From: Lachnospiraceae bacterium | Lineage (GTDB): Bacteria; Bacillota; Clostridia; Lachnospirales; Lachnospiraceae | DNA length: 64,000 bases | Assembly (NCBI GenBank): GCA_900168235.1 | Contig: FUZG01000009.1 | Coordinates: 1 to 64,000, forward strand | Reading direction: 5' to 3' | Part shown: positions 15,243 through 50,456 of the stretch, piece after piece | Layout of the letters: the number at the start of each line of letters is the position of its first letter | Position numbering within the stretch: position 1 is the first letter of the stretch | Program-made: the position numbers and the translations under genes | Notes under the pieces: model-generated | Database searches by the model: none | Told to the model about the DNA's origin: nothing | The model's input: only the letters and a program-made list of their open reading frames with translations

Positions 15243-15524
15243 ATGAGAAAATTTGACTTTACTATAACGAGTAAGATCGGTATGCACGCGCGTCCAGCAG
15301 CAATGGTTGCCCGCGGCGCAGAAAAGTACAAGAGTAAGATTTCCATTGCACATGAAGGCGTTACTCTTAACGGTAAGTCCATAATGGGACTTATCGCGTT
15401 AAAAGCACGTTTTGGTGATGTCATTACTATTACGATCGACGGACCCGACGAGGAAGAAGCCGAAACCGGAATGAAGCAGGTTTTGGAAGATATCCTCGGC
15501 GAAAAGGCAAACGAAAATCAATAA
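15243..15524 (+). CDS. ptsH: HPr phosphocarrier protein
   Basis: A 93-residue HPr. His15 is exactly placed in GMHARPAA and is the residue phosphorylated by enzyme I in the phosphotransferase system. Ser46 is in NGKSIMGLIAL and is the site used by HPr kinase/phosphorylase in Firmicutes for catabolite control. Both functional sites are intact, so this is the canonical carrier of the three HPr-like genes in this window. GGGGG lies 8 bases before the start. Its 3' end overlaps the convergent amidase gene by 7 bases. No ptsI lies beside it. Confidence 0.93.
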   Translation: MRKFDFTITSKIGMHARPAAMVARGAEKYKSKISIAHEGVTLNGKSIMGLIALKARFGDVITITIDGPDEEEAETGMKQVLEDILGEKANENQ

Positions 15525-24325: not shown

Positions 24326-24392
24326 CCGTTCTCTCCCCTTTTGATAGTCCCCAAAAACAGCTTATACTTACTAAACATTATACAACAAAAAA

Positions 24393-24425
24393 TTGCCGGA
24401 CCGCAGTTTTTATGCAGTCCGGCAA
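24393..24425 (-). terminator. Intrinsic terminator of the HPr/D-lactate dehydrogenase gene
   Basis: TTGCCGGACCGCA (24393-24405) pairs with TGCAGTCCGGCAA (24413-24425) with one mismatch, followed on the minus strand by a T-rich tract. It lies 25 bases after the stop of the fusion gene. Confidence 0.8.
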
Positions 24426-24449
24426 TCATATTTCATGCTGTAAGATTAT

Positions 24450-25748
24450 TTACTTTACTTCAGCCTGTCCGAAAGGAAGTGACTCGTTAAAGTTGCGGGC
24501 ATTTTCCATTGTTACAGCCGCGATAGCCTGGAGAGCTTCACGTGTGAAGAATGCCTGGTGAGAAGTAAGGATCAGGTTCGGGAAAGATGTAAGACGTGCA
24601 ACCACGTCATTTGTAAGTCTGTCCTCAGAACGGTCTGTATAAACATTTGTGTCCTCACCCTCATAAACATCGAGAGCCACAGCGTGGAACTTTCCGTCCT
24701 TAAGAGCACTGATAAGTGCCTCTACATCGATAAGTCCGCCTCTTGATGTATTTACGAGCATAACATTTTCCTTCATCATGCTGATGGACTCTGCATTAAT
24801 GAGGTGATGAGTTCCGCCCTCTCCCATGATGAGCGGAGCATGCAGGGAAATAAGGTCTGACTGAGCGAGAAGCTCTTCTTTGCTCACGTATGTGAGAAGA
24901 CCGTCTTCCTCAAGCTTCTTATTCGGGAAAGCATCCCAGCCAAGAACAGTCATTCCGTAACCCTTGCAGATCTTAGCCATGCAGACACCGATACGGCCTG
25001 TACCCATGATTCCTGCAACCTTATTGTGAAGATCGACTCCGAGAAGACCTGACAGAGCAAAGTTGTTATCACGAACCTTGTTGTAAGCCTTGTGAATCCT
25101 TCTGTTTGCAGCCTGAAGGATAGTCATTGCATGCTCAGCAACTGCATACGGAGAATATGCCGGTACACGAAGAACTGTCATGCCATACTCATGTGCAGCC
25201 TTTGAATCTACGTTATTAAAGCCTGCGCATCTGAGGAGTATAAGCTTTACACCACACTTATTCAGGATCTCAATGACAGGACGGGATGCATCATCATTAA
25301 CAAAAATACATACTGCGTCGTATCCCTGTGCAAGTGATGCTGTCTCCTCTGTAAGACGGCTGCTGAAATACTTGATCTCAGCGTTATATGCACCATCTCC
25401 GCGGTCCTTGCTGAGCTCGCTGAAGAAAATGCGGTCATAATCCTTTGTTCCAAAAAATGCGATTTTGAGGATCTCTGCCTTTTTATTCTTCGGAGCCTCT
25501 TCCTTGATGACCTCGAGGATCTTCTCCACAGCAGCTTCCTCATCTTCTCCATCTACTGTCACGTGCAGAGTCATGCCCTTTTCAGAAGCAAGCCCCAGGA
25601 TCTGGAGCACGTCTTTACCATCTGCTGTATTATCATCCGTTGAAATAGTCACAACGCTCTTGAATGCAGTACACGCCTGAGCAAGAAGTGCAGCAGGACG
25701 AGCATGTATTCCCATAGGATTCTTTACAACGTAATCAAACTTTTTCAT
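24450..25748 (-). CDS. HPr domain fused to D-lactate dehydrogenase (D-2-hydroxyacid dehydrogenase)
   Basis: A 432-residue fusion. Residues 1-88 form a complete HPr domain: MKKFDYVVKNPMGIHARPAA with His15 in place, and ADGKDVLQILGLAS where residue 46 is Asp instead of Ser. After a charged linker (EEAPKNKKAEI), residues 100-432 are a D-lactate dehydrogenase. It shows LLRCAGFNNVD, VPAYSPYAVAEHAM, the NAD-binding GIMGTGRIG, the catalytic Arg in VNTSRGGL, Glu in DVYEGEDTN and His in TSHQAFFT. The start at 25748 is preferred over the frame's 25790 because 25790 lies almost at the predicted transcription start and HPr begins at MKKF. A Rex-like site lies upstream. The product would reduce pyruvate to D-lactate, perhaps under phosphotransferase-system control. 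Confidence 0.9.
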   Translation of the reverse strand: MKKFDYVVKNPMGIHARPAALLAQACTAFKSVVTISTDDNTADGKDVLQILGLASEKGMTLHVTVDGEDEEAAVEKILEVIKEEAPKNKKAEILKIAFFGTKDYDRIFFSELSKDRGDGAYNAEIKYFSSRLTEETASLAQGYDAVCIFVNDDASRPVIEILNKCGVKLILLRCAGFNNVDSKAAHEYGMTVLRVPAYSPYAVAEHAMTILQAANRRIHKAYNKVRDNNFALSGLLGVDLHNKVAGIMGTGRIGVCMAKICKGYGMTVLGWDAFPNKKLEEDGLLTYVSKEELLAQSDLISLHAPLIMGEGGTHHLINAESISMMKENVMLVNTSRGGLIDVEALISALKDGKFHAVALDVYEGEDTNVYTDRSEDRLTNDVVARLTSFPNLILTSHQAFFTREALQAIAAVTMENARNFNESLPFGQAEVK

Positions 25749-25795: not shown

Positions 25796-25845
25796 ATTAT
25801 ACTCGTGAGATTTCCAACTTTCACTAATCATTAATATTTTAACAA
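25796..25845 (-). promoter_or_regulatory. Promoter with Rex-like operator before the HPr/LDH fusion
   Basis: On the minus strand TATAAT lies at 25801-25796. Upstream, at 25845-25828, is TTGTTAA-N4-TTAATGA, which matches the Firmicutes Rex consensus TTGTTAA-N4-TTAACAA in the whole first half and five of seven bases in the second. Rex is an NADH-sensing repressor of lactate and ethanol fermentation genes, so a site here fits a lactate dehydrogenase. It is a motif reading, not a scored prediction. The rest of 25846-26056 holds no supported gene. Confidence 0.6.
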
Positions 25846-50054: not shown

Positions 50055-50192
50055 ACACAGGAATTGTTTTTTGAATATTGTAGGCAAAGTGGCGAAAATT
50101 TAAGAATTTGTTAATTTATAGACTAGCAGAAAGGTTTCTATGATAATATATGCGTGATCGCACGTGGTTTTTTGCAGAAAGAAGGGACTAAG

Positions 50193-50456
50193 TTGAAAAG
50201 CAAAAAAATTATCGTAGAGGCAGCAAAGAAGATATCTGCAACACCGATCGCAGAGCTTGTTCAGGTAGCTTGCCGTTATGACAGTGGTATTCATATTCAG
50301 TCAGGAACCAGCAATGCGAACGCAAAGAGCATTATGGGAATGATGGCACTTAACTTCAGCGATGGACAGGAGCTTACTGTTATTGCAGAAGGCTCTGATG
50401 AAGAGATTGCCATCGATGGAATCGAAAGCTTTCTTACAGGGAAGGCTGTCTCTTGA
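50193..50456 (+). CDS. HPr-like protein lacking His15 (Crh-like)
   Basis: An 87-residue HPr-fold protein, read from a TTG with AAGGGA 6 bases upstream. Counting from that start, residue 15, the PTS phosphorylation site, is Ser (KISATPIAEL in place of GIHARPAAEL), and Arg17 is Thr. Residue 46 is Ser in the conserved NAKSIMGMMAL. So it cannot act as a PTS carrier, but keeps the HPr-kinase site. This is the logic of Crh in Bacillus, where residue 15 is Gln. It probably acts in catabolite control, although it need not be orthologous to Crh. A longer frame from 50154 exists and is less likely. Confidence 0.85.
   Translation: MKSKKIIVEAAKKISATPIAELVQVACRYDSGIHIQSGTSNANAKSIMGMMALNFSDGQELTVIAEGSDEEIAIDGIESFLTGKAVS

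What the first reader, a model, noticed from the sequence alone, without database searches (positions are those of the whole stretch)
24450..25748. HPr domain fused to D-lactate dehydrogenase
A complete HPr domain with His15 is the N-terminus of a complete D-LDH with all catalytic residues. Residue 46, the regulatory serine of HPr, is Asp, which mimics permanent phosphorylation at that site. The fusion could tie sugar uptake state (His15 phosphorylation by PEP) directly to pyruvate reduction in one polypeptide. I do not recall a characterised example.
Basis: partly seen in the sequence, partly recalled or inferred. Interest (0 to 1): 0.8.

Follow-up and report, generated by a model that had tools for sequence, protein, structure and literature searches.

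The report
Sugar-uptake domain fused to lactate dehydrogenase
A real, evolutionarily conserved protein of gut and rumen bacteria joins the small phosphate-carrying protein of the sugar-uptake system (HPr) to an enzyme that makes D-lactate, so one molecule may sense sugar uptake and set lactic acid output; the join is solid, the regulatory effect is untested.

Summary
One uninterrupted 432-codon ORF (minus strand, 25748-24450) encodes an HPr domain (residues 3-82, His15 present), an ~11-residue linker and a complete D-lactate dehydrogenase (94-426). It is no assembly accident: all 80 kept loci from other genomes match residues 1 to 431/432, including cultured isolates (Sharpea, Mitsuokella, Faecalibacillus, Lactimicrobium, Selenomonas). 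In 90 distinct fusions His15-Ala-Arg-Pro and the LDH Arg/Glu/His are invariant. The fused LDHs form one clade; its sister lineage includes two genomes with HPr and D-LDH as separate adjacent genes. One fusion followed by horizontal spread is the simplest account.

The 'Asp46 phosphomimic' is not the family rule: residue 46 is Asn in 80 of 90, Asp in 7. What is shared is loss of Ser46 (1 of 90, against 23 of 31 stand-alone HPrs), leaving His15 as the only classical HPr input. Four of four Selenomonadaceae carriers tested lack HPr kinase; Enzyme I is in 23 of 23 fused genomes tested, but also in 53 of 60 family genomes.

Best reading: a D-LDH tuned by Enzyme I-dependent His15 phosphorylation. 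Effect and sign are inferred. No description was found in the open-licence papers searched.

The parts
24450..25748 (-). HPr-D-LDH fusion gene, 432 codons plus stop
   Evidence: full-length relatives
25503..25748 (-). HPr domain, residues 1-82
   Evidence: Pfam PF00381 residues 3-82; AF2 block pLDDT 84-93
25704..25706 (-). His15 codon, predicted EI phosphorylation site
   Evidence: invariant in 90 of 90 fusions; His in 20 of 31 stand-alone HPrs
25611..25613 (-). Asp46 codon at the HPr-kinase site position
   Evidence: Asn 80, Asp 7, Glu 1, Arg 1, Ser 1 of 90
25470..25502 (-). Interdomain linker, residues 83-93
   Evidence: between the Pfam/PDB matches; pLDDT about 60 for residues 81-90
24471..25469 (-). 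D-lactate dehydrogenase domain, residues 94-426
   Evidence: phmmer to 5z21 E=1e-95; Foldseek to 5z21_B E=8.3e-37
24741..24743 (-). Arg336 codon (catalytic Arg; equivalence to Lactobacillus D-LDH numbering is recalled)
   Evidence: 90 of 90
24654..24656 (-). Glu365 codon (catalytic Glu; same basis)
   Evidence: 90 of 90
24558..24560 (-). His397 codon (catalytic His; same basis)
   Evidence: 90 of 90
25796..25824 (-). Promoter-like site GTGAAA-17-TATAAT
   Evidence: consensus scan, 10 of 12; not evidence of function
25828..25845 (-). Rex-like box TTGTTAAAATATTAATGA, 2 mismatches to TTGTTAANNNNTTAACAA
   Evidence: consensus from passages of PMC5367854; one match to the Rex-type DNA-binding domain in the genome
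25761..25768 (-). Purine-rich ribosome-binding-like stretch AAGAAAGG
   Evidence: read
24391..24427 (-). Terminator-like hairpin, 15 pairs, shortly after the stop

Best explanation
It is a D-lactate dehydrogenase with an N-terminal HPr domain acting as an on-board sensor of PTS charge. SHOWN: the fusion is real, recurs in many genomes, is under purifying selection in both halves, keeps His15/Arg17 and the LDH catalytic residues without exception in 90 sequences, has lost Ser46 in 89 of 90, and lives in genomes that have Enzyme I and, where tested, other HPr proteins. INFERRED: EI phosphorylates His15 from PEP when PTS sugars are scarce; when sugar flows, phosphate is drained towards EII proteins and the domain is unphosphorylated. 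Because the HPr is joined to the N-terminal strand of the LDH catalytic domain, its state shifts the activity of an enzyme whose structural group is known for allostery. Likely sign, by analogy only with Vibrio vulnificus HPr and pyruvate kinase A: unphosphorylated HPr (fast sugar uptake) favours lactate formation, phospho-HPr restrains it. Loss of Ser46 would free the enzyme from HPr kinase.
For: Architecture. His15, Ala16, Arg17, Pro18 in 90 of 90, with V/I, L/I and L/M at 47, 48, 51. Contrast with the 31 distinct stand-alone HPrs held: His15 in 20 of 31, Ser46 in 23 of 31, so the fusions keep His15 more strictly and Ser46 far less. HPr-part dN/dS 0.007-0.17 in the 10 of 11 pairs where it could be computed, dS saturated in at least one of these. 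EI in 23 of 23 fused genomes tested and in the own genome. All 10 fused genomes tested also hold at least one other HPr, so the fusion need not serve as general phosphocarrier. HPr kinase absent in 4 of 4 Selenomonadaceae carriers tested, so the Ser46 route cannot be the general input. Two genomes of the sister lineage have adjacent separate HPr and D-LDH genes. The closest structure is FnLDH, whose group shows pyruvate cooperativity and, for FnLDH, activation by fructose 1,6-bisphosphate (abstract of PMC4230899). HPr control of a pyruvate-node enzyme has precedent (passages of PMC5987630).
Against: No biochemical data. EI is common anyway (53 of 60 sampled family genomes), so its presence in the fused genomes is weak support. 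No recurrent neighbour gene family (66 of 80 loci analysed). The HPr half evolves faster than the LDH half (mean pairwise identity 56% v 78%). The AF2 model does not fix how the domains pack (pTM 0.70, linker pLDDT about 60). Of 15 LDH positions typical of fused enzymes none is tied here to an HPr interface. Ser46 is also lost in some stand-alone HPrs, including both ptsI-linked ones of this genome (Lys46), so its loss is not unique to the fusion. Asp46 in the window protein might itself hinder EI (recalled from S46D work on ordinary HPr).
Confidence: 0.5

Rival explanations
1. Proximity tether: the HPr domain docks on Enzyme I, where PEP is converted to pyruvate, and simply holds LDH next to a pyruvate source and the PTS; His15 phosphorylation has no allosteric effect.
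For: EI yields pyruvate when it phosphorylates itself (established chemistry; also stated in a passage of PMC2773005); positions 47, 48, 51 stay hydrophobic and His15/Arg17 invariant; the poorly ordered linker suits a tether.
Against: Pyruvate from pyruvate kinase is freely diffusible (general knowledge); a tether alone does not obviously need His15 in 90 of 90; no recurrent neighbour gene.
Confidence: 0.2
2. Working phosphocarrier: the fused HPr passes phosphate from EI to EII proteins like ordinary HPr; the LDH is a passenger or benefits from co-expression.
For: Complete HPr profile match with His15 and Arg17; HPr domains are known in multiphosphoryl transfer proteins (passages of PMC2405797).
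Against: All 10 fused genomes tested already have another HPr; no recurrent neighbour family, and in the window the flanking genes are an HNH-domain and a phosphoesterase gene.
Confidence: 0.15
3. Structural or stabilising domain without PTS contact: the HPr fold is retained only for folding or oligomer contacts.
For: Faster sequence change in the HPr half.
Against: His15-Ala16-Arg17-Pro18 invariant in 90 of 90, which a purely structural role does not predict; HPr paralogues of this same genome without His15 (L005, L007, L008) still match the HPr profile, so the residue is not needed for the fold.
Confidence: 0.12
4. Assembly or annotation artefact.
For: None found.
Against: Same junction in many independent genomes, including isolates.
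Confidence: 0.01

Closest known systems
Tetrameric allosteric D-LDHs of Fusobacterium nucleatum, Pseudomonas aeruginosa, E. coli (5z21, 5z20, 5z1z/3wx0)
   Same: LDH half aligns end to end, 47% identity to FnLDH in the Foldseek alignment; Arg/Glu/His conserved
   Different: No HPr domain; 15 positions nearly fixed in 91 fused LDHs and rare in 19 unfused relatives, e.g. Trp271 for Tyr
HPr (PtsH) of Bacillota
   Same: Full HPr profile match, His15, Arg17
   Different: Ser46 replaced, usually by Asn; Cys26 in 88 of 90 against 0 of 31 stand-alone HPrs; C-terminal enzyme
Crh (HPr-like, no His15, has Ser46; recalled)
   Same: HPr fold with one of the two sites lost
   Different: Mirror image: the fusion keeps His15 and loses Ser46
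Multiphosphoryl transfer proteins (FPr/FruB and dihydroxyacetone-kinase-linked types)
   Same: HPr as a domain of a larger protein (passages of PMC2405797)
   Different: Partners named there are PTS phosphotransfer domains (IIA, EI), not a fermentation enzyme
V. vulnificus HPr-PykA regulation
   Same: HPr phosphorylation state sets the activity of a pyruvate-node enzyme (passages of PMC5987630)
   Different: Two separate proteins, and pyruvate kinase rather than LDH

Membership tests
PTS HPr family (PF00381 / TIGR01003) | Profile match over curated cut-off | tested here: met
   85.9 bits v 23; 79.2 v 47.9
PTS HPr family (PF00381 / TIGR01003) | Active-site His15 with following Arg17 | tested here: met
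   90 of 90
PTS HPr family (PF00381 / TIGR01003) | Ser46 regulatory site of Bacillota HPr | tested here: not met
   Asp in the window protein; Ser in 1 of 90 fusions, against 23 of 31 stand-alone HPrs. The genome's two ptsI-linked HPrs also lack it (Lys46)
PTS HPr family (PF00381 / TIGR01003) | Accepts phosphate from EI and donates it to EII | not testable with these tools
   EI is present
D-2-hydroxyacid dehydrogenase / D-LDH | 2-Hacid_dh and 2-Hacid_dh_C domains over cut-off | tested here: met
   102.1 v 24.6 and 158.1 v 25.1 bits
D-2-hydroxyacid dehydrogenase / D-LDH | Catalytic Arg, Glu, His | tested here: met
   R336, E365, H397 in 90 of 90
D-2-hydroxyacid dehydrogenase / D-LDH | Reduces pyruvate rather than another 2-keto acid | not testable with these tools
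   Best matches are D-LDHs; FnLDH also takes 2-ketobutyrate. No dehydrogenase model among the 25 NCBIfam rows shown (of 30) reaches its cut-off
Multiphosphoryl transfer proteins | HPr fused to IIA and/or EI domains | tested here: not met
   Only HPr and 2-Hacid domains found in the window protein and six other fusions
Crh | His15 absent, Ser46 present | tested here: not met
   His15 present, Ser46 absent

The most novel reading that the evidence does not exclude
A new class of fermentation enzyme: a D-LDH with a built-in, single-input PTS phospho-switch. Loss of Ser46 and strict retention of His15 turned the two-input HPr into a pure EI-charge sensor that directly gates lactate formation, and the module spread horizontally among gut and rumen Bacillota.
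Probability: 0.42. Interest if true: 0.78.

Novelty: new variant of a known kind. Interest (0 to 1): 0.6.

Why it matters
To my knowledge (recalled), PTS control of central enzymes is known mostly through binding between separate proteins, which is hard to dissect. Here the sensor and the enzyme are one chain, so the question whether PTS charge directly sets fermentation output can be tested with one purified protein. Carriers include rumen and gut bacteria, some of them known lactate formers (recalled, e.g. Sharpea), where the choice of D-lactate as end product matters for acidosis and cross-feeding (general knowledge).

Tried and rejected
Asp46 as a conserved phosphomimic: rejected as a family feature (Asn in 80 of 90).

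Conserved operon partner: none. The most frequent neighbour families occur in 8 of the 66 loci in which my gene caller recovered the fusion (80 were given; 14 lost to the simple caller). A same-strand neighbour within 150 bases exists upstream in 22 of 64 and downstream in 17 of 61, so the gene may be co-transcribed in some species. The neighbours were clustered, not annotated with Pfam, so single PTS neighbours could have been missed.

Rex control as a family rule: rejected. Boxes with at most 2 mismatches lie upstream of 10 of 94 rows (7 distinct loci after removing identical ones): the window, L044, L045, L046, and L050, L077/L013, L116. Simple base shuffles, not dinucleotide-preserving, gave about 1%. 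Kept only as a feature of the window and its nearest relatives.

EI presence as a specific correlate: weak, since 53 of 60 family genomes have it.

HPr tree: fused domains fall together, and together with the split-pair HPrs, but with support 80 and 82 on about 85 columns.

HPr gene beside other unfused LDHs: found only in L022 and L023; none in the held flanks of L024-L038 or the 10 kb around L024. L167 and L168 were not checked for this.

Papers that the HPr + lactate dehydrogenase searches listed: PMC3198936 and PMC2773005 were checked by passages and do not describe such a fusion; PMC5987630 by passages; PMC7214760 and PMC4018673 were seen as listings only.

Full report
OBSERVATION. The minus-strand ORF 25748-24450 encodes 432 residues with no stop or frame change between the two halves. 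Pfam gives PTS-HPr at residues 3-82 and both 2-hydroxyacid dehydrogenase domains over residues 122-422. The best solved relatives are D-lactate dehydrogenases aligned from residue 94 (all 60 rows shown of 186 are on the dehydrogenase side).

NOT UNIQUE, NOT AN ARTEFACT. A scan of species-representative genomes found 162 candidate stretches, 148 of them relatives; the best 80 were kept and all 80 match from residue 1 to 431 or 432. The other 68 were not returned. Titles include isolates: Sharpea azabuensis and S. porci, Mitsuokella multacida and M. jalaludinii, Selenomonas montiformis, Faecalibacillus intestinalis and F. faecis, Lactimicrobium massiliense, Floccifex porci, [Clostridium] spiroforme. 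It is in 7 of 61 genomes of the Mitsuokella family and in 5 of 57 of the Lactimicrobium family, which also has 2 unfused close LDHs. Across the phylum it is in 2 of 199: the own genome and one whose match has the same coordinates and score as the Mitsuokella one. Of the two other genomes of the window's genus, G380 has it and G079 has only a dehydrogenase match.

CONSERVATION. Of 94 recovered fusions 90 are distinct. In these Gly13, His15, Ala16, Arg17 and Pro18 are invariant, positions 47, 48 and 51 are V/I, L/I and L/M, and R173, R336, E365, H397 are invariant. The spacing of R336, E365 and H397 (29 and 32) equals that of the catalytic Arg235, Glu264, His296 of Lactobacillus D-LDH (recalled numbering). 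Residue 46 is Asn 80, Asp 7 (the window, L044, L045, L046, L048, L067, L072), Glu 1, Arg 1, Ser 1 (L021, a long-branch member). Thus the phosphomimic reading applies at most to a few members; the common property is that the HPr-kinase serine is gone and His15 is strictly kept. From recall, S46D in ordinary HPr impairs phosphorylation by EI, so Asp46 here could slow charging; that is untested.

SELECTION. Nei-Gojobori dN/dS for codons 1-82 is 0.007-0.17 in the 10 of 11 close pairs where it could be computed (one undefined by saturated dS; the lowest value also rests on a saturated dS), against 0.011-0.068 for the LDH part. Mean pairwise identity is 56% for the HPr part and 78% for the LDH part among 90 fusions. 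The HPr half is therefore kept by selection but changes faster.

ORIGIN. In a tree of 73 LDH domains (quick IQ-TREE, SH-aLRT support only; the chosen outgroup was not one side of a branch) the 54 fused rows are one clade with support 100. They join, with support 94, a group (support 90) of one plain LDH (L024) and two genomes, G348 and G030, of one genus. In both of these an HPr gene of 86 codons (His15, Arg17, Cys18, Gln46) lies directly upstream of the D-LDH gene on the same strand, 80 and 102 bases away; Pfam confirms both parts. The HPr tree also places these HPrs next to the fused domains, but with support 80-82 only. L024 has no HPr gene within the 10 kb examined, so if adjacency is ancestral it was lost there. 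The simplest account is: adjacent genes, one fusion, then spread. Independent juxtaposition in G348/G030, or fission there, is not excluded. Rows from Erysipelotrichia, Lachnospiraceae and Selenomonadaceae are interleaved within the fused clade, which points to horizontal transfer; many of these labels come from metagenome bins.

GENOME CONTEXT. The own genome has 10 HPr-profile matches, the fusion included, 9 of them over the cut-off, 2 Enzyme I matches, and one full-length HPr kinase match plus two partial ones, of which one is over the cut-off. EI is present in all 26 genomes tested, 23 fused and 3 kin, but also in 53 of 60 sampled genomes of the family, so this is a necessary condition met rather than a correlation. 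HPr kinase is found in 21 of 26; the five without are four Selenomonadaceae carriers (G398, G401, G436, G452) and G030, which is 86% complete. The fusion thus occurs without the kinase that would read Ser46. All 10 fused genomes searched have at least one other HPr.

TRANSCRIPTION UNIT. Upstream lie a purine-rich ribosome-binding-like stretch, a GTGAAA-17-TATAAT promoter-like site and, just upstream of it, TTGTTAAAATATTAATGA; a 15-pair terminator-like hairpin follows the stop codon. These are consensus matches. The Rex consensus TTGTTAANNNNTTAACAA was seen in passages of PMC5367854. The genome has one match to the Rex-type DNA-binding domain PF06971 (the Rex name is recalled). The box is kept in three near relatives (L044, L045, L046) but not family-wide. 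No neighbour family recurs in more than 8 of 66 loci. In the window the gene looks monocistronic; elsewhere a same-strand gene lies within 150 bases upstream in 22 of 64 loci and downstream in 17 of 61.

STRUCTURE. AlphaFold2 on 55 fusions gives mean pLDDT 84.8 and pTM 0.70: an HPr-like element order (E2-7, H16-27, E32-36, E41-43, H47-51, E60-66, H70-82), a stretch at residues 81-90 with mean pLDDT 60, then the LDH. The loop 364-368, which holds Glu365, is below 50. Foldseek's 50 rows shown are all D-LDHs or related dehydrogenases, led by FnLDH 5z21; no HPr chain is among them, so the HPr half rests on sequence profiles and the element order. Relative placement of the domains should not be read from this model.

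MECHANISM. LDHs of this structural group are allosteric: the abstract of PMC4230899 reports positive cooperativity for FnLDH and EcLDH, negative for PaLDH, and activation of FnLDH and PaLDH, but not EcLDH, by fructose 1,6-bisphosphate. Passages of PMC5987630 report that unphosphorylated HPr binds and stimulates V. vulnificus PykA, and that this does not occur in E. coli. The most likely mechanism is that the fused HPr reports EI charge through His15 and shifts LDH kinetics. I give this 0.5, with a tether to EI (0.2), a phosphocarrier (0.15) and a structural role (0.12) as rivals. The strict conservation of His15-Arg17 argues against the purely structural role, because HPr paralogues of this same genome have lost His15 (L005, L007, L008) and still match the HPr profile.

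NOVELTY. Six full-text searches of the open-licence library combined HPr with lactate or 2-hydroxyacid dehydrogenase. They listed five papers in all; three were checked by passages and describe no such fusion there, two were seen as listings only (PMC7214760, PMC4018673). A search on HPr domain fusions led to a 2008 phylogenomic paper on EI and HPr (PMC2405797, passages only) that names fusions of HPr with IIA and EI; the word 'dehydrogenase' does not occur in its main text. Subscription journals and domain databases were not searched, and automatic domain listings may well show this architecture. I rate it a new variant of a known kind: HPr as a module is known, its fusion to a fermentation enzyme appears undescribed.

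Noticed in passing
window 15243-15521(+): A stand-alone HPr with both His15 and Ser46, about 10 kb from the fusion; the genome's two ptsI-linked HPrs have Lys46 instead.
   Followed up: partly
window 50154-50456(+): A Crh-like HPr paralogue with Ser at the His15 position and with Ser46, next to an MFS transporter gene. Three HPr relatives with three different site combinations thus lie within about 35 kb.
   Followed up: partly
L001, L002 (own genome C19, C22): Two HPr-EI gene pairs, both HPrs with Lys46 instead of Ser46, although an HPr kinase gene is present elsewhere.
   Followed up: partly
L149, L150 (Mitsuokella multacida, Selenomonas montiformis): An HPr-like domain (GIHAR[VI]A) at the N-terminus of a separate frame of 567-569 aa, about 2 kb upstream of the stand-alone HPr gene; partner domain not identified.
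   Followed up: no
HPr residue 26 of the fusion family: Cys26 in 88 of 90 fused HPr domains and in 0 of 31 stand-alone HPrs, where it is Ala in 29; role unknown.
   Followed up: partly
L160 / G436: A fusion from the Mitsuokella family that groups with a Lachnospiraceae member (L020, support 92) away from the Mitsuokella sequence in the LDH tree, which suggests a second transfer.
   Followed up: no
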